Assembly: GCF_016863275.1 (NCBI RefSeq)
Contig: NZ_BOOO01000001.1
Coordinates: 248,001 to 312,000 of the forward strand
Direction of reading: 5' to 3'
Source: Planotetraspora mira
Lineage (GTDB): Bacteria; Actinomycetota; Actinomycetes; Streptosporangiales; Streptosporangiaceae
DNA: 64,000 nt
A model generated the notes under the pieces. That model saw only the letters and a program-made list of their open reading frames with translations, was not told the DNA's origin and ran no database searches. This document shows positions 6,314-58,244 of this stretch, piece by piece. Positions within the stretch are counted from its first letter, which is position 1. Each line of letters starts with the position of its first letter. The position numbers were made by a program, and so were the translations under genes.

Positions 6314-6425
6314 GCCGCTGGACCTGAGCCCTCGGACCCTGTCGCGACATCGTGTGAGCGCCTGAGCCCTCAGGTCCTGCTGCGACGCTGTGCGAGCGCC
6401 TGAGCTCTCGGGTCCTGCTGCGACT
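6312..6425 (+). repeat. three imperfect ~38-44 bp tandem repeats between arcA and the HEPN gene
   Basis: Units start at 6312, 6356 and 6394 and share the frame GAGCGCCTGAGCCCTCAGG-TCCTGCTGCGAC. Each contains a small palindrome of the type CCTGAG-CC-CTCAGG. The genes converge here, so this may serve as a compound bidirectional terminator (inference). Confidence 0.5.
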
Positions 6426-14002: not shown

Positions 14003-14035
14003 TCCCTCCCGATCAGGGCTAGGCTAGGGGCGTAA

Positions 14036-14129
14036 GACGCGCGGGAGCCCGGCAGGCCGGGCTGAGAGGAGAGCGTGAGGCTCTCGACCGCAATCGACCT
14101 GATCCGGGTAATGCCGGCGAAGGGAGCGC
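14036..14129 (+). promoter_or_regulatory. TPP riboswitch (THI box)
   Basis: The sequence has the full THI-box order: GGGAGCCC, then CCGGGCTGAGAGG, a variable P3 arm, GACCTGATCCGGGTAAT and the closing GCGAAGGGAGCGC. The final AAGGGAG is also the Shine-Dalgarno of thiO (GTG at 14131), so thiamine diphosphate binding should hide the ribosome site directly. A TAGGCT hexamer at 14020-14025 is a candidate -10. Confidence 0.95.
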
Positions 14130-14130
14130 A

Positions 14131-16357
<2,227 letters not shown>

Positions 16358-19538: not shown

Positions 19539-20906
19539 TCATCTCCCTGGGGTCAGGAACCTTCCGGTCGGCGTGACGTAGTCGACCGGCACACCGCGTG
19601 ACCATGTGGTCCGCACGACGCCCGTCAGCGTCCTGCCGTCGTAGGGCGAGACCGGGTTGCGATGGTGCAGCGCCGCCACGTCGACCGTGAACTCGGCCGC
19701 CGGGTCGAACGCCACCAGGTCGGCGTCCGCGCCGACCCGCAGGTCTCCCTTGTACGGCAGGCCGGCCAGCGCCGCGGGCCCCCGGGCCATCCATCTGACG
19801 ACGTCGGGCAGGCCGTACCCCCGGGAGAGGGCGGCGGTCCACACGACGGGCAGTCCGAGCTGGAGCGAGGAGACGCCACCCCACGCCGCGGCGAAGTCGG
19901 GCACCTTGAGATCGGGCGTCGACGGCGAGTGGTCGGAGACGATCCCCATCAGCACGCCGTCCGCGAGTGCCTGCCAGAGGGCGTCGCGGTTGGCGGCCTC
20001 CCTGACGGGCGGGCAACACTTGTACGCCGGTCCCGTGACCTCCTCGGCGGTCAGGCAGAGGTAGTGGGGACACGTCTCGGCACTGATCCGCACGCCGTCC
20101 CGCTGAGCCTGGCGCAGCGGCTCGATGCAGGCGGCGGCCGAGACGTGCACGATGTGGGCGCGTGCTCCCGTCTCCGCGGCGAGCTCGATGACCTGCTCGA
20201 CGGCTCTCCGCTCGGCGTCCGGAGTACGAGACCTCAAGAAGTCCGGATATGTCGGGCCGGTCGGTTCGGTCAGCGCGGCGGGATCCTCCGCGTGTGCGAT
20301 GAGCAGCCCGTCGAACGACGCCAGCTCCACGAGCGCGGTCCTGAGGCCGTCGCGATCGAGCGCGGGGAACTCGTCGACACCTGAGGGAGACAGGAAACAC
20401 TTGACGCCGAAGACGCCGGCCTCGTGCAACGGCCGCAGATCCGCCACGTTGCCGGGCACGGCCCCGCCCCAGAAGCCGACGTCGACGTGACACTGCCCCC
20501 GGGCCGCCTTCCGCTTGACCTCCAGGGAGGCGACGTCGACCGTGGGCGGCAGCGAGTTGAGCGGCATGTCGACGATCGTCGTCACGCCTCCGGCGGCGGC
20601 CGCCCTGGTGGCCGAGGCGAACCCCTCCCAGTGCGTACGCCCGGGCTCGTTGACGTGGACGTGCGTGTCCACCAGACCGGGCAGCAACGCGAGGTCGCCG
20701 AGGCCGACGGTCTCCCGCGCGGGCGGCGGCTCGTCATAGGGGCGGAGGGCCGCGATCCTGCCCGCTCGTACGGCCACCGCCAGCGGGCGCTCCCCCTCGG
20801 GGGTGACGGCCCGGCGCGACCGGACGACCAGGTCGTACGGCTCGTCCGCGGCCCTGGCATCCGGAACGTGCTCGGCGGCGTCCGGGGCGCGCTCGGCGGC
20901 GCTCAC
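19539..20906 (-). CDS. allB: allantoinase
   Basis: Metal-dependent amidohydrolase opening allantoin to allantoate. It has 455 residues. The HxH metal motif is in GLVDTHVHVNEPGRTHWEG near residue 65, ITIVDMPLNS-type sequence follows (TTIVDMPLNSLPP), and AHIVHVSAAACIEPL and MGIVSDHSPS complete the metal site. The GTG start overlaps the upstream deaminase stop (GTGA). The family looks like dihydroorotase, but the purine context and the uricase pathway genes fix the assignment. Confidence 0.93.
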   Translation of the reverse strand: MSAAERAPDAAEHVPDARAADEPYDLVVRSRRAVTPEGERPLAVAVRAGRIAALRPYDEPPPARETVGLGDLALLPGLVDTHVHVNEPGRTHWEGFASATRAAAAGGVTTIVDMPLNSLPPTVDVASLEVKRKAARGQCHVDVGFWGGAVPGNVADLRPLHEAGVFGVKCFLSPSGVDEFPALDRDGLRTALVELASFDGLLIAHAEDPAALTEPTGPTYPDFLRSRTPDAERRAVEQVIELAAETGARAHIVHVSAAACIEPLRQAQRDGVRISAETCPHYLCLTAEEVTGPAYKCCPPVREAANRDALWQALADGVLMGIVSDHSPSTPDLKVPDFAAAWGGVSSLQLGLPVVWTAALSRGYGLPDVVRWMARGPAALAGLPYKGDLRVGADADLVAFDPAAEFTVDVAALHHRNPVSPYDGRTLTGVVRTTWSRGVPVDYVTPTGRFLTPGR

Positions 20907-22267
20907 TCGGCGGCCGCCAGCAGCCGGCGGTGGGCCCGTGCCCCCGCCTGCGCGGCCTCGGCGTCGGAGACCGTCCGCAGCTCGCCGTCCTCGACCACCG
21001 TCCGGCCGCCCACCAGGAGCCTGGCCAGGGGCGGGGTCTGACCGTACGCGAACGCCACGACGGGATCGTCGATCGCCGCGTGGTAGCCGCCGAGCCGCCA
21101 CAGGGCGATGTCGGCCAGTTTGCCCGGCTCCAGGGAGCCGATCTCCTTCTCACGGCCGAGGCACCTGGCCCCGCCGATGGTGGCCAGTTCGAGTGCCTGG
21201 CGGGCGGTCAGCGCGCGCGGGCCGTACCGGGCGCGCTGCATGAGCATCGCCATCCGCACCTCGCCCGCGAGCGGGGTCATCTCGCTGGAGGCCGCGCCGT
21301 CGACGCCGAGGCCGACCGGGGCGCCCTCGCGGAGCAGGTCGGAGATGCGGGCGATGCCCGCGCCGAGGCGTCCGTTGGACGAGGGACAGTGGGCCGTGCC
21401 CGTGCCGGTCTGGGCGAAACGTCGGATGTCGGCGTCGGTCAGATGGACGCAGTGGGCGAGCCACACGTCCGGGCCGAGCCAGTTGAGCTGCTCGAGGTAC
21501 TCGACCGGGAGCATGCCGAACTGCGCTCTGCAGTGCTCGTCCTCGTCCGCGGTCTCCGCGATGTGGGTGTGCAGGCGGACGCCGTACGAGCGGGCGAGCT
21601 CCGCGGACCTGAGCATCAGTTCGCCGGTCACCGAGAACGGCGAGCAGGGCGCGACGGCGACGCGGAGCATCGAGCCGAACGACGGATCATGATATTTGCG
21701 GATGGCGTCCTCGGTCGCCTGGAGAACCTCGTCGGCCCCCTCGACGAGGTCGTCCGGCGGCAGCCCGCCCTGGGACTGGCCGCGGTCCATCGAGCCGCGG
21801 CACGGATGGAACCGCACGCCCACCTGCCGGGCCGCCTCGATCTCGGCGTCGAACAGGTCGCCGCGCCCCTTGGGGAAGACGTAGTGGTGGTCGGTCGACG
21901 TCGTGCAGCCCGACCTGGCCAGCCAGGCCAGCCCGGCCGTCGCCGCTCCCGACACCACCTCGGCGTCCATCCGTCCCCACAACCGGTAGCTGGCGACCAG
22001 CCACTCGAACAGCGTCCCGTCGGGCGTGATGCCCTGCGAGGCCCACTGGTAGAGGTGGTGGTGGGTGTTGACGAACCCCGGGGTCGCCAGGCAGCCGGAT
22101 CCGTCGACGCGCTGCGCGCCCTCGGGTACGGCTGGCGCCGCGCCCGGGCCGACGGCCGTGATCCGGTCGTCCTCGATCACGATGTGGCCGGAGGAGATCT
22201 CCTGCCCGACGATCGGGACGATGTGGGCGTTCTCGATGACGACTCGCCGTATTGCATGATCACGCAC
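20903..22267 (-). CDS. 8-oxoguanine deaminase / guanine-deaminase-like amidohydrolase
   Basis: A 454-residue metal-dependent deaminase of the TrzN/GuaD/8-oxoguanine-deaminase group. It has GFVNTHHHLYQWASQG (metal HxH), STDHHYVFP, LHTHIAETADEDEHC and GLGVDGAASSE near residue 320. In purine operons such proteins convert guanine or 8-oxoguanine to xanthine or urate; I favour 8-oxoguanine deaminase by overall pattern, without proof. The only available start is GTG 22267, which lies at the edge of a 53-bp repeat so that its first codons (GTG-CGT-GAT-CAT-GC) come from the repeat. It overlaps allB. Confidence 0.85.
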   Translation of the reverse strand: MRDHAIRRVVIENAHIVPIVGQEISSGHIVIEDDRITAVGPGAAPAVPEGAQRVDGSGCLATPGFVNTHHHLYQWASQGITPDGTLFEWLVASYRLWGRMDAEVVSGAATAGLAWLARSGCTTSTDHHYVFPKGRGDLFDAEIEAARQVGVRFHPCRGSMDRGQSQGGLPPDDLVEGADEVLQATEDAIRKYHDPSFGSMLRVAVAPCSPFSVTGELMLRSAELARSYGVRLHTHIAETADEDEHCRAQFGMLPVEYLEQLNWLGPDVWLAHCVHLTDADIRRFAQTGTGTAHCPSSNGRLGAGIARISDLLREGAPVGLGVDGAASSEMTPLAGEVRMAMLMQRARYGPRALTARQALELATIGGARCLGREKEIGSLEPGKLADIALWRLGGYHAAIDDPVVAFAYGQTPPLARLLVGGRTVVEDGELRTVSDAEAAQAGARAHRRLLAAAE

Positions 22268-22422
22268 AGGAAACTCGCAGGTCAGAGTGGTCGGCAGCGA
22301 AGGTGCGCATGATCACGCTCGGAGAACGGGCAGGCCGGAGGGGTGTTCTCCGAACGCGTGCATGATCACGCACGGGAGGCTCGCAGGCAGGGCGGCATGA
22401 TCACGAAGGTGTGCATGATCAC
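22252..22422 (-). repeat. 53-bp phased repeat array A
   Basis: Copies of GTGATCATGCAC or close variants, read on the minus strand, start (low coordinate) at 22252, 22305, 22358 and 22411, all exactly 53 bp apart, with an extra off-phase core at 22393. The array fills the whole gap between two operon genes: the TGA of the 2Fe-2S subunit gene (22419-22421) is inside the first copy read on that strand, and the GTG of the deaminase adjoins the last copy. Confidence 0.85.
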
Positions 22423-22892
22423 GGCTGGTGTTTGCGGGCGGCGGCCAGGCGGACGGCGTCGAGGATCTTCTCGTATCCGGTGCATCGGCAGAGGTTGCCG
22501 GCCAGGGCCTCGCGGATCTCGGCGTCCGCGGGGACCCCGGGCGTGCTCTCGATCAGCGAATGCGCCTGGACGATCAGCCCGGGAGTGCAGAACCCGCACT
22601 GTACGGCTCCCGCCTCCACGAAGGACCGCTGAACCTCGTCCAGTTCCCCGCCCGAGGCCAGGCCCTCCACCGTGATCACGTCCCGGCCCTCCGCCTGGCC
22701 GGCCGCGACCAGGCAGGCGCAGACCGGGGTTCCGTCCAGGTAGACCGTGCACGAACCGCACTCGCCCTGCTCGCAGGCGTTCTTCGCCCCCGGCAGGCCT
22801 AGCCGTTCCCTGAGGACGTAGAGGAGGCTCTCGCCCTCCCATACGTCGTCCGCGGCCATCGACTCGCCGTTGACACTGATGTTCACCCTCAT
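22419..22892 (-). CDS. xanthine dehydrogenase 2Fe-2S subunit
   Basis: A 157-residue iron-sulfur subunit of a molybdenum hydroxylase, carrying electrons from the Mo site to FAD. The plant-type cluster motif CEQGECGSC with a later cysteine is near residues 40-60. The second, C-terminal cluster uses CGFCTPG and CRCTGYEKI near 100-145. The start overlaps the FAD-subunit stop (ATGA). In this operon no molybdopterin subunit follows; array A occupies that place. Confidence 0.93.
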   Translation of the reverse strand: MRVNISVNGESMAADDVWEGESLLYVLRERLGLPGAKNACEQGECGSCTVYLDGTPVCACLVAAGQAEGRDVITVEGLASGGELDEVQRSFVEAGAVQCGFCTPGLIVQAHSLIESTPGVPADAEIREALAGNLCRCTGYEKILDAVRLAAARKHQP

Positions 22893-26461: not shown

Positions 26462-26670
26462 GACGGCGCCCCCAGACGCCGTCCCGCCGCCCTTCTCCTC
26501 GCGGCGTCCCCCCGGACCGCCGCCTCCGTGATGACGGCGCCCCCCGACGGCCGCCTTCACCGGATGACGTCCCCCCGGACCGCCATCCTCTGGTGACGGC
26601 GCCCCTGAACCGTCACCTCTGATCACGGCGTCCCCCGGACGCCGTACCCCGCTGCGATCCGGCGCCCCCG
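26462..26670 (+). repeat. degenerate ~30-bp tandem hairpin repeats
   Basis: About seven units of the form GACGGCGTCCCCCGGACCGCC start near 26462, 26503, 26533, 26566, 26595, 26624 and 26661 (spacings 29-41 bp). Several are self-complementary, for example GGCGTCC-CCC-GGACGCC and GACGGCG-N8-CGCCGTC. The array lies 46 bp after the nfo stop. No coding potential is convincing. Confidence 0.65.
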
Positions 26671-29914: not shown

Positions 29915-30949
29915 ATGGTCATCGTCATGGCCCCCGGAGCCACGCAGGACGACATCGAGTCGGTCGTCCGGCTCGTCGCCTCCGCCGGAGGCGAGGCCTT
30001 CGTCAGCCGGGGAGTGAGCCGCACGATCATCGGGCTGATCGGCGACGTGGAGCAGTTCGCGGCACTGAACCTCCGGGGGCTGCCGGGCGTGGCGGACGTG
30101 GTGCGTGTGTCCACGCCGTACAAGCTGGTCAGCAGGGACAACCACCCCGAACGGTCCACTGTCACCGTCCGCGGGGTCCCGATCGGCCCGGACACCGTCA
30201 CGCTCATCGCCGGCCCGTGCGCGGTCGAGACTCCCACGCAGACCCTCGAGGCCGCCGAGATGGCCAAGGCCGCGGGTGCGACCCTGCTGCGCGGCGGCGC
30301 GTTCAAGCCGCGGACCTCGCCGTACGCCTTCCAGGGACTCGGGGAGAAGGGCCTGCGCATCCTGGCGGACGTCCGGGAGCAGACGGGCCTGCCGATCGTC
30401 ACCGAGGTGGTCGACGCCCACGACGTGGCGCTGGTCGCCTCCTACGCGGACATGCTGCAGGTGGGGACCCGCAACGCCCAGAACTTCGCGCTGCTCCAGG
30501 CCGTCGGCGCCGCGGGCAAGCCGGTCATGCTCAAGCGGGGCATGACCGCCACGATCGAGGAATGGCTGATGGCGGCCGAGTACATCGCGCAGCGGGGGAA
30601 CCTCGACATCGTGCTGTGCGAGCGGGGCATCAGGACCTACGAGACGGCGACCCGCAACACGCTGGACATCTCGGCGGTGCCGGTGGTGCAGCGGATGTCC
30701 CACCTGCCGGTCATCGTGGACCCGTCCCACTCCGGCGGCCGCAGGGACCTCGTGCTGCCTCTGACCCGGTCGGCCATCGCGGTCGGGGCCGACGGCGTGA
30801 TCATCGATGTGCACCCGCACCCCGAAGAGGCTCTGTGCGACGGCCCGCAGGCTCTGGTCGACGGCGACCTGGACGAGCTGGCCATGATCATGCAGGAGTT
30901 CCCCAAGCTCATGTCCCGCACCCTGGCCACCACCCCCACCCGGGCGTGA
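29915..30949 (+). CDS. aroF: type I-beta DAHP synthase with N-terminal regulatory domain
   Basis: 3-deoxy-7-phosphoheptulonate synthase, first step of the shikimate pathway. It has 344 residues. An N-terminal ferredoxin-like domain at about 1-70 resembles the feedback domain of the Thermotoga enzyme and may bind Tyr or Phe. The KDO8PS-like barrel follows, with LIAGPCAVET, LRGGAFKPRTSPYAFQGLG, LQVGTRNAQNF, VMLKRGM and VDPSHSGG. AAGGAG precedes the ATG. The stop TGA lies in the first copy of repeat array B. Many actinobacteria use a type II enzyme at the comparable locus. Confidence 0.94.
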   Translation: MVIVMAPGATQDDIESVVRLVASAGGEAFVSRGVSRTIIGLIGDVEQFAALNLRGLPGVADVVRVSTPYKLVSRDNHPERSTVTVRGVPIGPDTVTLIAGPCAVETPTQTLEAAEMAKAAGATLLRGGAFKPRTSPYAFQGLGEKGLRILADVREQTGLPIVTEVVDAHDVALVASYADMLQVGTRNAQNFALLQAVGAAGKPVMLKRGMTATIEEWLMAAEYIAQRGNLDIVLCERGIRTYETATRNTLDISAVPVVQRMSHLPVIVDPSHSGGRRDLVLPLTRSAIAVGADGVIIDVHPHPEEALCDGPQALVDGDLDELAMIMQEFPKLMSRTLATTPTRA

Positions 30950-31524
30950 TCATGCACAGGTTCGGCGAACCCCCAGCCGACCTGCGCCTCCCCCCGCCGT
31001 GATCATGCACAGGTTCGATGGGAGCCCAGTTGACCTGCGGTCACTCCGGCCGTGATCATGCACGGATTCGGTGGGACCCCGGCTGACCAGCGCATATACG
31101 CCGCGCGATCATGCACAGATTCGCGATTGGCCCATTCGACCTGCGCCGACGCCTTTCGTGATCATGCACCGCCGGGTTCGTACGGCATGCGCGTCACAGC
31201 GCATGCCGTACAGAGGGTGGGCCGCCGATCCCGCGATGTCACAGCACCATCGGAAGCCCGTCTCGCGGGGCGCTCGGGCCGCGAGAGCCCGGACGAGCCC
31301 GTGCATGATCACGCACGGAGTTCACGCAGGTCAGGCCGGCCATCGAGGAACCCGTGCATGATCACGCGGCGTATATGCGCTGGTCAGCCGGGGTTCCGCC
31401 GAATCCGTGCATGATCACGGCGAGGAAGTCTGCTGGTCGGGGGGCCTTTCTCCGAACCTGTGCATGATCACCAAAAAGGTTTGGGCAGGTCAAGTGGGGC
31501 AATCCCGAGCCTGTGCATGATCAC
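30946..31524. repeat. 53-bp phased repeat array B (five direct plus five inverted copies)
   Basis: The 12-mer GTGATCATGCAC (or GCGATCATGCAC) starts at 30946, 30999, 31052, 31105 and 31158; its reverse complement starts at 31301, 31354, 31407, 31460 and 31513. Every interval is 53 bp and the two halves mirror exactly about 31235. Each unit continues with AGRTTCGG and, around position 34, GACCTGCG. The third unit of each half matches over about 66 bp with three differences. The centre holds a separate 13-bp perfect palindrome (31180-31192 and 31199-31211). aroF ends in the first copy. Confidence 0.9.
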
Positions 31525-31535
31525 GCCCGAGGGGG

Positions 31536-32738
31536 TCAGGTGTCGGCGTCCAGGCGGTAGGGGCGGATGGAGTCGGCCAGCTGGGATGCCAGGTCTTCTG
31601 CGTCCAGACGCTTCTCGATCAGCTTCAGGTCCTCGATCTTCGCCCGGGTCTCCGCCGAACGCGGAGCCAGCAGCGTGCAGCAGTCCTCGTCGGGAAGCTC
31701 GGAGATCTCCAGGGTGCCGATCCGGCGGGCCTCCGCGATGATCTCGGTCTTGTCCAGCCCGATCAGCGGCCGGAGGATCGGGAGGTCGACGGCGTTGTCC
31801 TGCGCGGTGATGTTGGTCAGCGTCTGGGAGGAGACCTGGCCGAGCGAGTCACCCGTGACGAGAGCCTCGGCGTGGATGCGGTGGGCCACCTCCTCGGCCG
31901 TCTTCAGCATGAGCCGCCGCTGCGCGATCATGGCGAGCCGGTCCTGGCCCGACGCCCTGATCGACTGCTGGGCCTTGCCGAACGGCACGACCCACAGGCG
32001 GGACTTGCCCTGGAACTTGTCGAGGTTGCGGACCAGCGCGTACGCCTTGTAGATCGACTCCGACGTCGTGAACGGAATGCCGGAGAAGTGCAGGAAGTCC
32101 ACCCGAAGTCCGCGGCGCATCATGCGGTACGCGGCGACCGGGGAGTCGATGCCGCCCGACATGAGCACCAGGCCACGACCGCTGGAGCCGACCGGAAGGC
32201 CGCCCTGGCCGGGGATGCCGCCGGTGAACAGGAACACCTCGTCCCTGTCGACCTCGATGTGCACGGTCAGCTCGGGGTTCTTCAGGCTCACCGGCAGGCC
32301 GTAGGTGTCGTTGATCGCACCGCCGACGAGCCGGTCCAGCTCGTTGGAGCGCAGCGGGAACCGCTTGTCCCGGCGCCGCGATCGGACGGCGAAGTGCGCC
32401 TTGCGGGCCACCTCGTCGGTGTCCCTGACGAGCTCGATGGCCGCCTTCGTGACGATCTCGGGGTCCTTGGGGACACGCCACGCGAGGTGGATGAGGACCA
32501 GTCCGGGCACCTCGGACACCCGCTGCGCCACCGCCGCCGCGACCTCGTAGGCGGTCCCCTCGGGGAGGAACAGCGCGATGACGCCGTGCCGCTGGCGGAT
32601 GTCCACCGAGTAGTCCTTGAGGGCGGCCTTGATGTTCGCCCGCAACCGCATCTCGAACAGCTCGCGGTTCCTGCCCTTGAGGACGACCTCGCCTAACTTG
32701 AGCAGGACGCAGGGCTCTCCGAATGTGGTCATCGACAT
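31536..32738 (-). CDS. thiI: tRNA 4-thiouridine synthase ThiI (no rhodanese domain)
   Basis: Adenylates U8 of tRNA for sulfur insertion. It has 400 residues: ferredoxin-like N-terminus, THUMP domain at about 65-170, and a PP-loop with VLMSGGIDSPVAAYRM near residue 188. The C-terminal rhodanese domain that supplies sulfur in Escherichia coli is absent, so thiamine thiazole is made by the ThiS route and the role is probably tRNA-only (inference). DEDCCTLLAPRSAET is conserved near the end. The ATG at 32738 has a GGAGGT site. Its TGA falls in the partial unit bordering array B. Confidence 0.92.
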   Translation of the reverse strand: MSMTTFGEPCVLLKLGEVVLKGRNRELFEMRLRANIKAALKDYSVDIRQRHGVIALFLPEGTAYEVAAAVAQRVSEVPGLVLIHLAWRVPKDPEIVTKAAIELVRDTDEVARKAHFAVRSRRRDKRFPLRSNELDRLVGGAINDTYGLPVSLKNPELTVHIEVDRDEVFLFTGGIPGQGGLPVGSSGRGLVLMSGGIDSPVAAYRMMRRGLRVDFLHFSGIPFTTSESIYKAYALVRNLDKFQGKSRLWVVPFGKAQQSIRASGQDRLAMIAQRRLMLKTAEEVAHRIHAEALVTGDSLGQVSSQTLTNITAQDNAVDLPILRPLIGLDKTEIIAEARRIGTLEISELPDEDCCTLLAPRSAETRAKIEDLKLIEKRLDAEDLASQLADSIRPYRLDADT

Positions 32739-32850
32739 AGGTGGGAACCTCCGGACGGACATTTCATGCCACGGGCGACAACGCGCCGGCCCAGCGGGAA
32801 CTTCCCCACTGTAGTGCCGTGCGGCGGGGGCTCGTCCGCGCCTCCAGGTG

Positions 32851-55960: not shown

Positions 55961-57109
55961 TCACCGGCACTCCGCGGCGGGCTCGTTTCCCGTCGCGGTG
56001 GCCGTGAGGATGCCGGAGAAGCGGGCGGCGACCCGGTCCCAGCCCCACTCCTCCTCGATCCAGGCCCTGCCCCGCTCCCCCATCGCGCGGGCACGGGCCG
56101 GGTCGGACAGCAGGCCGGTCAGGGCTCCGGCGATCTCCGTTTCCGACGTGCCGTCGACGACCAGGCCCGTCTCGCCGTGCCGTACGGCGTCGGGGGCGCC
56201 GCCCGACGAGCCGGCGACGACGGGGAGCCCGGTGGCCGACGCCTCCAGGTAGACGATGCCGAGCCCCTCGATGTCGAGCCCGGCCAGGCGGCTGCGGCAC
56301 GGCATGGCGAACACGTCGCCCGCGTCGTAGTGCGCCGGAAGCGTCGCCCACGGCACCGACCCGGTGAACACGACCGAACCCTTCGCGACGTGGCCGGCCG
56401 CCGCCCGTTCGAGCGCGTTGCGGGACGGGCCGCCGCCGACCAGGAGCAGCGCGGCGTCGGGGATCTCCCGCAACACCCGCGGCCAGGCCCGGATCAGCAT
56501 GTCCTGGCCCTTGCGCGGCACCAGGCGGGAGACGCACACGACCACCGGCCTGTCCTCCAGGCCCAGCGACTTGCGGACGCCGGCGCCTCCCGCGCCCGGG
56601 TGGAAGGCCGAGGTGTCCACTCCGGGCGCCAGCCGCACCAGCTTGGACTCCGGTATCACCGATGCGAGCCTGCGCCGCGTGTAGTCGCCGAGGTAGGTCA
56701 CCACGTCCGCGCCCCGGCCGATGCGGCGGAGCATGTCACGGGCGACGGGCAGCCGGGCCCACGACGCCTCGTGCCCGTGGGTGAGCATCACGACCCGGCC
56801 CACACCGGCCGAGCGCAGACCGGGCGCGAGCATCCCCAGCGGAGCCGCGGCGCCGAAGACCACGGTGTCGCAGCCCTTGGCCAGCTCCGCCGCCCTCCGG
56901 GCGACGCCGGGCGTGGGAAGCATGAGGGTTCCCGGATGCCTGACCACCTCGTACGGCTGCCGCCTGTCGAAGGAGTCCGATCCCCTCCACTTGGGCGCGT
57001 AGACGACCACGGAGTCCGCCGGCCGCCGCGAGGCGAGCCCATGGACGAACGCCTGGATCCCCCCGGCCCGCGGCGGAAAGTCATTGGTGACGATCAGTGT
57101 CCTCCCCAT
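55961..57109 (-). CDS. GT4 glycosyltransferase, PimB'-like mannosyltransferase
   Basis: Predicted GDP-mannose-dependent transferase acting on phosphatidylinositol mannosides at the inner leaflet. It has 382 residues: N-terminal acceptor domain (LIVTNDFPPRAGGIQAFVHGL), donor domain with SRLVPRKGQDMLIRAWP, SVPWATLPAHYDAGDVFAMPCRSR and the E-x7-E motif EGLGIVYLEASATGLPVVAG. ATG 57109 follows GGAAGGTGG. Its position beside the fadD15-like gene supports PimB' (Rv2188c); donor and acceptor are inferred. Confidence 0.87.
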   Translation of the reverse strand: MGRTLIVTNDFPPRAGGIQAFVHGLASRRPADSVVVYAPKWRGSDSFDRRQPYEVVRHPGTLMLPTPGVARRAAELAKGCDTVVFGAAAPLGMLAPGLRSAGVGRVVMLTHGHEASWARLPVARDMLRRIGRGADVVTYLGDYTRRRLASVIPESKLVRLAPGVDTSAFHPGAGGAGVRKSLGLEDRPVVVCVSRLVPRKGQDMLIRAWPRVLREIPDAALLLVGGGPSRNALERAAAGHVAKGSVVFTGSVPWATLPAHYDAGDVFAMPCRSRLAGLDIEGLGIVYLEASATGLPVVAGSSGGAPDAVRHGETGLVVDGTSETEIAGALTGLLSDPARARAMGERGRAWIEEEWGWDRVAARFSGILTATATGNEPAAECR

Positions 57110-57127
57110 CGCCACCTTCCCTTCCCC

Positions 57128-57351
57128 GTGATCATGCACAAATTCGGGATTGCCACCTCTGACCGGCCCTTTCATCTCGCGTGATCATGCACAGACTCGG
57201 GAATCCCCCCATCCACCTGCGCGAACGCGTCGCGTGATCATGCACACTTTCGGCAACACCCCCGCCCACCTGGGCGAATCCGCGGCGCGATCATGCACAG
57301 GTTCGGCGGACGGCCCGGCCACCTGGGCGAACCCCTCACGTGATCACGCAC
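57128..57351 (+). repeat. 53-bp phased repeat array C
   Basis: Five copies of GTGATCATGCAC or one-base variants start at 57128, 57181, 57234, 57287 and 57340, each 53 bp apart. The flanking unit sequence again shows AGRTTCGG at positions 13-20 and a (G/C)ACCTG motif near position 34. All are direct on the plus strand. The array lies upstream of the mannosyltransferase start and past the peptidase stop. Confidence 0.88.
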
Positions 57352-57383: not shown

Positions 57384-58244
57384 TCACGAGGCGGCCACAG
57401 GACCGAGCTGCCGCACCACATAATCCCGCCACGCCTCGGTCAGGCCGGGAAGGGTCATGCCCAGCGTGTCCCTGAGGGCCGCCGTGACACCGGACCGCAG
57501 GGCGGCACGGTACAGGCCCACCAGCTTGGGTTCTCCGAACCGCTCGGCGATGTAGCGGCACACCAGCCACGCCTCCTCGTACGCCTGCGCGAGCCGTACC
57601 GACCCGGACTGGAACTCGGCGCGCCCGGGCAGCTCGCGCGGCGGGGTCCCGGCACGCACCTCCTCGGCGAGCTCGGCCGCGACCGCGCGCACGGGCAGAC
57701 CGGCGTCCAGATATCCGACGTAGTCGGCGAAACCCTCCACCAGCCAGGCCGGCATGTCTCCCGTGAGCACCGCACCGGTGGCGACATGGGTGAGTTCGTG
57801 GGTGAGCACCACCTGACGACCGGTCCGGCTGAGCCGCCCGAAGCCGGACGGGTCGACGATGACGCGGCCCACCCCCGCGAACGCCGCGAATCCCTCGACG
57901 TGCGCGGGCGCCGCCAGCTCCGCGGCCTGCGCCTCCGTCGCGGGCACCAGCACGACCGCGTCGACCGGCCCCCAGACCTTGGCGACCGTATGGCCGGCCC
58001 GGTCGGCGACCGCGGCGATCTCGGCGGCCTGCCGCGCGGAGCGGCCGACGACGACGGTGTGCTCGCCCCTGGCCACGACCGCCTGCGCCCACATGCCGGG
58101 ATGCTCCCGCACGATCGCCCGCGCCCTCGGCAACAGGGTGTCGGGCGCCGCGGCGGACGTCGGCCCGGCCACGGCGAAGGCCACCAGGACGGCCGCCAGC
58201 ACGGACACCGCCCTCGACCGTGCGTGAGCACGCATGCCGAGCAT
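57384..58244 (-). CDS. secreted gluzincin-type metallopeptidase
   Basis: A 286-residue exported protein with signal peptide (RAVSVLAAVLVAFAVAGPTSAAA). The zinc motif HELTH lies in VVLTHELTHVATG near residue 148, with the third ligand Glu in PAWLVEGFADYVGYL about 20 residues on, the pattern of the M1/MA-like gluzincins. The N-terminal third (ARAIVREHPGMWAQAVVARGEH) is a pro- or accessory region. ATG 58244 is preceded by a GGGGG site. The substrate is unknown. Confidence 0.85.
   Translation of the reverse strand: MLGMRAHARSRAVSVLAAVLVAFAVAGPTSAAAPDTLLPRARAIVREHPGMWAQAVVARGEHTVVVGRSARQAAEIAAVADRAGHTVAKVWGPVDAVVLVPATEAQAAELAAPAHVEGFAAFAGVGRVIVDPSGFGRLSRTGRQVVLTHELTHVATGAVLTGDMPAWLVEGFADYVGYLDAGLPVRAVAAELAEEVRAGTPPRELPGRAEFQSGSVRLAQAYEEAWLVCRYIAERFGEPKLVGLYRAALRSGVTAALRDTLGMTLPGLTEAWRDYVVRQLGPVAAS

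What the first reader, a model, noticed from the sequence alone, without database searches (positions are those of the whole stretch)
30946..31524. A repeat family with an exact 53-bp period, mirror-symmetric in array B
Ten copies of GTGATCATGCAC (one-base variants allowed) occur here: five forward at 30946, 30999, 31052, 31105 and 31158, five reverse at 31301, 31354, 31407, 31460 and 31513. Every interval is 53 bp and the two halves mirror about 31235. Arrays at 22252-22422 and 57128-57351 keep the same 53-bp phase. Unit positions 1-20 and about 34-41 are conserved (GTGATCATGCACAGATTCGG, GACCTGCG); the rest varies. 53 bp is about five helical turns, so the cores lie on one DNA face, which suggests a protein assembling along the array, or an RNA of repeated modules. 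I know no described family matching it.
Basis: partly seen in the sequence, partly recalled or inferred. Interest (0 to 1): 0.85.

Follow-up and report, generated by a model that had tools for sequence, protein, structure and literature searches.

The report
Phased 53-bp repeat arrays between genes
In the soil bacterium genus Planotetraspora about a thousand copies of a short DNA word, nearly always set 53 bases apart, form mirror-image arrays between genes, often just behind gene ends; they look like docking strips for an unknown DNA-binding protein that marks or insulates the ends of transcription units.

Summary
The 12-mer (up to 1 mismatch) occurs 502+514 times in this 9.0-Mb Planotetraspora genome; the reversed control 2+3. 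In 852 kb, 115 of 120 same-strand spacings up to 70 bp are exactly 53. Arrays are head-in (forward block left, reverse block right), mostly 3-5 units a side. They lie mainly in convergent and co-directional gaps, and two-sided co-directional ones start close behind stop codons. They are old: 68 of 76 cross-species comparisons find an array at the same gene junction. The core hardly changes between orthologous units while other positions drift. The core GTGATC[A/T]TGCA recurs as hairpins or arrays in other Actinomycetes. One other genus has 41-bp arrays with the same second box, YGACCWGS, but inverted (0 of 2000 shuffles). That, and no base-pair covariation, favours double-stranded DNA read by a protein over an RNA module. 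Best explanation: protein-binding arrays at transcription-unit boundaries (roadblock, terminator or insulator). Protein and function are not shown. REP/RAYT and Rfam membership were tested and not met; DNA uptake sequences are the closest described analogue I found.

The parts
30946..31169 (+). Array B, forward block: four 53-bp units plus a fifth core (cores at 30946, 30999, 31052, 31105, 31158)
31301..31524 (-). Array B, reverse block: five cores (31301, 31354, 31407, 31460, 31513), mirror of the forward block about 31235
31180..31211 (.). Perfect 13-bp inverted repeat with 6-nt loop in the centre of array B (hairpin, terminator-like, no T run)
   Evidence: read; the centre folds with z -3.2
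22252..22422 (-). Array A, one-sided reverse block, four cores, in the sense direction between two minus-strand genes; the outer core holds the upstream gene's stop codon
57128..57351 (+). Array C, one-sided forward block, five cores, antisense between two minus-strand genes
29915..30949 (+). DAHP synthase gene; its stop codon TGA is bases 2-4 of the first core of array B
   Evidence: PF00793, 3.4e-81
31536..32762 (-). ThiI gene, convergent; ends 11 nt from array B
   Evidence: PF02568, 1.6e-64
22419..22892 (-). 2Fe-2S protein gene, upstream of array A
   Evidence: PF01799, 9.6e-31
20903..22267 (-). Amidohydrolase ORF, downstream of array A; the longest ORF starts inside the last core
   Evidence: (PF01979, 1.3e-62)
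55961..57115 (-). Glycosyltransferase gene, its start beside the first core of array C
   Evidence: (PF00534, 1.2e-37)
57384..58202 (-). Peptidase MA-like gene, ends 32 nt from array C
   Evidence: PF13485, 1e-9

Best explanation
Each 53-bp unit is a composite double-stranded DNA binding site: a core box GTGATC[A/T]TGCA with TTC at 16-18, and a second box YGACCWGS. Three to five units stand in tandem, in register, facing inward from one or both edges of an intergenic gap. A sequence-specific protein, not identified, is inferred to load on the units and form a polar nucleoprotein block beside the ends of transcription units. The most likely role is to stop or insulate transcription in both directions: read-through from the upstream gene, and antisense transcription from the downstream promoter. 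Shown: occurrence, exact spacing, place, conservation at orthologous junctions, constraint on the core, sharing of the core across families, inversion of the second box in another genus. Inferred: the protein, cooperative loading, any effect on transcription. Origin from a mobile palindrome with the same core is compatible.
For: Exact phase: 115 of 120 spacings. Orthologous units with G004 (49 units): 271 substitutions, none at positions 1, 3-7, 9, 17, 18; 34 of 34 intervals unchanged. No covarying stem. Box 2 shared with the 41-bp arrays of G054 but inverted: profile correlation 0.976, best direct 0.63, 0 of 2000 shuffles. Two-sided co-directional arrays start a median 14 nt behind the stop and leave 76 nt before the next start (19 groups, p 1.9e-5); in seven other lineage groups the stop side is nearer in 25 of 28 co-directional sites. 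Gaps with arrays: convergent 21, co-directional 27, divergent 3, against 69, 235 and 179 gaps of 150 bp or more. In 16 of 50 two-sided groups the halves are in one register, 24-26 modulo 53 (window chosen after seeing the data).
Against: No binding protein and no transcript data. One-sided co-directional arrays are sense in 13 groups and antisense in 13, so they are not simple 3'-UTR terminators. The C-rich leader before the first core (56% C against 35-39% after array-less stops) and the fold of array B (z -20.5) leave room for an RNA-level role. Half-arrays alone fold slightly better than shuffles (mean z -1.5, 20 of 63 below -2). Several array centres hold ordinary hairpins that could terminate on their own. 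The spacing test is biased, since arrays were chained at 52-54 bp. Gene calls outside the window come from my own script.
Confidence: 0.48

Rival explanations
1. A family of mobile palindromic elements (MITE-like) with a class-wide core. Arrays are old products of tandem or nested growth, tolerated between gene ends, where they do least harm.
For: In genus g50 two palindromes of about 75 bp lie in frame in a UreF gene (PF01730, 5.6e-25); the aligned gene of G108 lacks both. Copies within one genome share arms that differ between genomes. Avoidance of divergent gaps fits selection against damage to promoters. Sites are orientation-neutral in Planotetraspora.
Against: In Planotetraspora the sites are vertically inherited (68 of 76 comparisons) with the core kept and the rest drifting, which decaying copies would not show. 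No Y1 transposase in 14 of 16 element-bearing genomes; other transposases were not searched. No target duplication was seen at the two UreF inserts.
Confidence: 0.2
2. RNA-level terminator: C-rich leader (rut-like) plus repeated GUGAUCWUGCA modules in the transcript, used by Rho or another RNA-binding factor; inverted halves serve convergent genes.
For: The 15 nt before the core are 45-69% C in all eight lineage groups measured. Elements follow stops in other lineages (25 of 28), and all eight single-direction elements in their co-directional gaps are sense (my count). Many are strong hairpins; array B folds with z -20.5.
Against: No covariation. Box 2 inverted between genera. 13 of 26 one-sided co-directional groups are antisense. 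Exact 53-bp spacing has no known need in a rut site.
Confidence: 0.17
3. DNA uptake or transfer signal (DUS/USS- or clt-like) kept by molecular drive, some inverted pairs doubling as terminators.
For: Short invariant core, about a thousand copies, inverted pairs at gene ends, lineage dialects; neisserial DUS inverted pairs act as terminators (PMC2397512, passages).
Against: Clustered: 167 of 179 cores in 852 kb lie in 25 clusters, whereas DUS lie about 1.1-1.5 kb apart. Fixed 53-bp phase and a second box are not DUS features. Competence was not tested.
Confidence: 0.07
4. Binding arrays for a general chromosome-structure protein (gyrase, SMC, a nucleoid protein), relieving or partitioning supercoils at gene ends.
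For: Enrichment in convergent gaps, orientation-neutral use, phased spacing.
Against: Dense phased arrays were found only in Planotetraspora and the sister genus of G101, with a sparser set in G054, while such proteins are general. No direct evidence.
Confidence: 0.08

Closest known systems
Neisserial DNA uptake sequences paired in terminators (PMC2397512, passages seen)
   Same: Short invariant word in high copy, much of it intergenic, inverted pairs at gene ends
   Different: Here nearly all copies are clustered in phased tandem units with a second conserved box; uptake not tested
REP/BIME elements of enterobacteria (recalled)
   Same: Extragenic palindromic repeats at 3' ends and in convergent gaps
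   Different: No Y1/RAYT transposase in 14 of 16 genomes; fixed 53-bp direct tandem units with drifting interior
Mycobacterial interspersed repetitive units (MIRU; PMC2453075, passages seen)
   Same: Actinobacterial intergenic tandem repeats; one locus combines 77-bp and 53-bp units
   Different: MIRU copies in a locus are described as near-identical with point variants; here units differ freely outside the boxes. No sequence comparison was made
Rickettsia palindromic elements (recalled)
   Same: Palindromes inserted in frame in genes, as in UreF of G131
   Different: Different sequence and host; arrays absent there as far as I recall
Roadblock terminators such as Sal boxes with TTF-I, Reb1 sites (recalled)
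   Same: Tandem protein-binding boxes downstream of a transcription unit
   Different: Eukaryotic; here bacterial, genome-wide, often two-sided, protein unknown

Membership tests
REP/BIME with RAYT | Y1-type transposase (RAYT) in the genome | tested here: not met
   PF01797 found in 2 of 16 element-bearing genomes, not in G000
REP/BIME with RAYT | extragenic palindrome | tested here: inconclusive
   hairpins in other lineages; 42 of 95 array groups in Planotetraspora and G101 are one-sided, without a partner
DNA uptake sequence (DUS/USS) | short invariant word in about a thousand dispersed copies | tested here: inconclusive
   1016 copies, but 167 of 179 in 852 kb are clustered in 25 places
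DNA uptake sequence (DUS/USS) | preferential uptake of DNA bearing the word | not testable with these tools
   needs a transformation assay
Rfam RNA family | match above gathering score | tested here: not met
   only a TPP riboswitch at 14031-14142 in the window
Structured RNA module | covarying base pairs | tested here: not met
   236 units; the nine highest mutual-information pairs are neighbours; four distant pairs pass the null maximum slightly (0.106-0.128 against 0.105) and form no stem; consensus stem at shuffle level
CRISPR array | unrelated spacers between near-identical repeats | tested here: not met
   the interval holds a second conserved box at 33-40 and has orthologues at the same loci; cas genes not searched
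Intrinsic terminator | GC-rich hairpin followed by a T run | tested here: inconclusive
   hairpins in some centres and in other lineages; the elements printed show no long T run; the consensus terminator scan tool was not run
MIRU | sequence homology to MIRU units | not tested
   no MIRU sequence in the passages read
MITE | insertion with target-site duplication | tested here: inconclusive
   two UreF insertions relative to G108, no duplication seen

The most novel reading that the evidence does not exclude
A dedicated bacterial system of boundary insulators: an unknown actinomycete protein reads GTGATC[A/T]TGCA and YGACCWGS boxes on double-stranded DNA, in fixed phase, and builds polar, often two-sided nucleoprotein arrays at some 140 places in the chromosome (my proportion), a genome-wide protein roadblock terminator or insulator with a class-wide palindromic precursor.
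Probability: 0.25. Interest if true: 0.92.

Novelty: new variant of a known kind. Interest (0 to 1): 0.76.

Why it matters
If the arrays act on transcription they would be a protein-dependent boundary element of a kind I know from no bacterium, in high-GC Actinomycetes, where termination without U-tracts is still debated (recalled). The exact phase, the core shared by unrelated families and the inverted second box make the binding protein findable by pull-down and the role testable with one reporter.

Tried and rejected
RNA module with a conserved stem: mutual information and pair counts show none. REP/RAYT. Rfam. Sense-only 3'-UTR element: antisense arrays exist. 'Private to one genus': the exact 53-bp pair in 100 relatives suggested it (5 genomes positive, all genus g1), but reject it. 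Mirror homology of the two halves: mean identity 0.39-0.41 for mirror pairs against 0.37-0.38 for others, p 0.23 and 0.08; 12 of 286 pairs exceed 0.7. Helical phasing as a general rule: sharp in Planotetraspora (53) and G054 (41), slightly looser in G101 loci (85 at 53, 20 at 52, 2 at 51), scattered in the rest.

Literature: core strings (2 papers, 54 papers, of which the 30 listed looked unrelated by title); REP with Actinobacteria and RAYT; DUS, terminators and Actinobacteria; MIRU (the 10 listed off topic); convergent-gene palindromes (off topic by title); Planotetraspora repeats. I saw search listings for all of these and passages only of PMC2453075, PMC2397512 and PMC2267715. Supplements and subscription journals were not searched.

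Rows dropped and limits: runs of fewer than three units were left out, and only units followed at exactly 53 bp entered. One search dropped clusters of fewer than three cores or within 600 bases of a stretch end; its stricter gene-score subset has 73 groups, with one-sided co-directional sense 12, antisense 8. One search used 50 two-sided groups and 19 co-directional ones without a called gene inside. In one search eight of 76 comparisons read 'absent'; some are coordinate effects, since the reverse comparison finds the array; one real absence is in G003. Seven of 57 element sites in other lineages fell inside called genes. Loci L081-L175 were fetched by a 53-bp pattern and cannot be used to estimate the share of 53-bp spacings. 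Some G054 loci overlap, so its 23 of 27 spacings include repeats; the distinct units are 18. Genera of G-handles outside Planotetraspora are unnamed.

Full report
OBSERVATION. The ten cores, the 53-bp steps and the mirror axis at 31235 are as described. Arrays at 22252-22422 and 57128-57351 share the period. With up to 2 mismatches the window holds 34 matches against a shuffled mean of 4.25, largest 10. In the whole genome (9.03 Mb, 100 contigs) the 12-mer with up to one mismatch occurs 502 times forward and 514 reverse, the reversed control 2 and 3 times. Pairs exactly 53 bp apart number 559, control 0.

ORGANISM. The four same-genus genomes carry 115 to 599 such pairs and none of the other 95 genomes carries one.

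ANATOMY. In 236 units, positions 1, 3-7, 9, 17 and 18 are invariant or nearly so, 33-40 read YGACCWGS, 45-46 have under 1% G, and 20-31 are mostly free. In 852 kb, 115 of 120 same-strand spacings up to 70 bp are 53 and two are 52. Of 179 cores there (up to 1 mismatch), 167 lie in 25 clusters, which by proportion gives about 140 clusters in the genome (estimate). In 75 half-arrays of three or more units the gene-proximal core is perfect in 93%, the fourth in 31% of 62. The forward block stands left of the reverse block except in 6 of 134 sites. In 16 of 50 two-sided groups the distance between halves is 24-26 modulo 53 (p 8.6e-9 for a window chosen after seeing the data).

PLACE. Gene calls by my own codon-model script put 51 clusters of three species in 21 convergent, 27 co-directional and 3 divergent gaps; the background of gaps of 150 bp or more is 69, 235 and 179. 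In 95 flank-groups (five Planotetraspora-titled strains and G000) the split is 32, 51 and 12, with 53 two-sided and 42 one-sided. Two-sided co-directional arrays lie a median 14 nt behind the stop and 76 nt before the next start (19 groups, p 1.9e-5). One-sided co-directional arrays are sense in 13 and antisense in 13 groups. In this window array A is sense and array C antisense, with flanking genes confirmed by Pfam. In array B the TGA inside the first core is the stop codon of the DAHP synthase gene.

EVOLUTION. Of 76 cross-species comparisons of array junctions 68 find an array at the same place. Variable positions agree at 0.36 between loci, 0.41 between adjacent units of one array, and 0.70-0.96 for 17 half-arrays matched with G004 (three further best matches scored 0.57-0.61). 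In 49 orthologous units with G004 there are 271 substitutions: 0.155 per site at variable positions, 0.031 over positions 1-12, none at 1, 3-7, 9, 17 and 18, and 34 of 34 intervals kept their length. With G003 (10 units) the same nine positions are unchanged. Array-free intergenic DNA (121 gaps) has 0.05-0.17 indels per substitution, so some tens of indels would be expected. The measure is biased because arrays were chained at 52-54 bp, and a shortened unit exists in G003. Copy number changes by whole units, and one array is inverted in place in G004. Twelve of 286 left-right unit pairs are more than 0.7 identical, a sign of occasional exchange between halves.

WIDER FAMILY. GTGATCATGCACNNNTTC with one mismatch is enriched in five further genomes of the family: G101 (364+366), G053 (68+88), G131 (58+58), G054 (29+26) and G130 (20+20); the other non-Planotetraspora genomes have at most 7 (150 genomes). 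Inverted pairs of the core occur in 31 of 341 family genomes, 11 of 68 genera, several with one copy only, and in 8 of 394 genomes of a class sample, six of them in four other families. In a phylum sample the 2 hits of 246 are G000 and G093, both of this class; none of the 225 genomes of other classes has one. G101 has a 768,793-bp contig and so is the record named Planotetraspora sp. A-T 1434. In most other lineages the element is one hairpin: C-rich leader, core, lineage-specific arm, loop and the mirror. The 15 nt before the core are 45-69% C in eight lineage groups, against 35-39% after array-less stops in G000; antisense edges in Planotetraspora have 50% C, so the leader belongs to the element. 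In co-directional gaps of seven other lineage groups the stop side is nearer in 25 of 28 sites, medians 16 and 95.5 nt (from the rows). In genus g50 two palindromes lie in frame in a UreF gene; G108 lacks both, so at least these moved.

THE 41-BP GENUS. In G054 23 of 27 spacings are 41 (some loci overlap). Its 18 distinct units share the core, TC at 17-18, and a box SCWGGTCR at 26 (16 of 18, up to one mismatch). This is the reverse complement of box 2, which stands at 33 in 205 of 236 Planotetraspora units. Profile correlation is 0.976 inverted and 0.63 direct; none of 2000 column shuffles reached 0.976 (highest 0.914). A single-stranded RNA signal should not survive inversion of one part; a double-stranded protein site does. 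Inference: core centre to box-2 centre and on to the next core is 32 and 21 bp in Planotetraspora, 22 and 19 bp in G054, near whole helical turns.

RNA TESTS. The nine highest mutual-information pairs are neighbouring columns; four distant pairs slightly pass the null maximum and form no stem. The one consensus stem (12-17 with 34-39) pairs no more often than shuffled columns. Array B as one RNA folds at -413 kcal/mol, z -20.5. Part of this comes from core-core pairing and one near-identical mirror unit (0.91); 42 of 95 groups have no partner half. Half-arrays have mean z -1.5 over 63 cases, 20 below -2; centres of 30 nt or more have mean z -1.1, 7 of 34 below -2, some being plain hairpins.

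MECHANISM. Most likely the units bind an unknown protein on double-stranded DNA and mark or block transcription at unit ends. An antisense half facing the next promoter would stop divergent transcription from it (inference). I give this 0.48. A mobile palindrome as origin is compatible and may be true in addition. An RNA-level terminator remains possible because of the C-rich leader. Uptake sequences are the closest described analogue I found (PMC2397512, passages).

NOVELTY. The searches listed under Tried and rejected found no description. As an interspersed repeat of gene ends it belongs to a known broad kind; fixed phase, two boxes, two-sided arrays and a class-wide core make it a new variant. 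A roadblock or insulator protein, if found, would make it a new kind.

Noticed in passing
window 14031-14142: TPP riboswitch above Rfam's gathering score (58.4 bits).
   Followed up: no
window 6323-6424 and 26502-26644: Other tandem repeats, periods 38 and 29 bp, not related to the 53-bp family by sequence as far as the consensus units show.
   Followed up: no
L236:1296-2105: UreF gene (PF01730) of an unnamed relative with two in-frame palindromic inserts bearing the core, absent in G108.
   Followed up: partly
L213, G004:C2:346730-346999: Array inverted in place relative to G000 and G003 (order minus then plus), flanks unchanged.
   Followed up: partly
G003:C1:65354-66255: Junction without the array that G000 and G004 carry; about 0.9 kb of other sequence instead.
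   Followed up: no
L271:14751 and L274:5946: Centres of arrays in G101 hold a further hairpin with a variant word GTGACCTTGCAC or GTGACCTCGCAC.
   Followed up: no
G002 (same genus): Only 139+121 cores against about 690-760 in total in the other four Planotetraspora genomes: a lineage with far fewer arrays.
   Followed up: no
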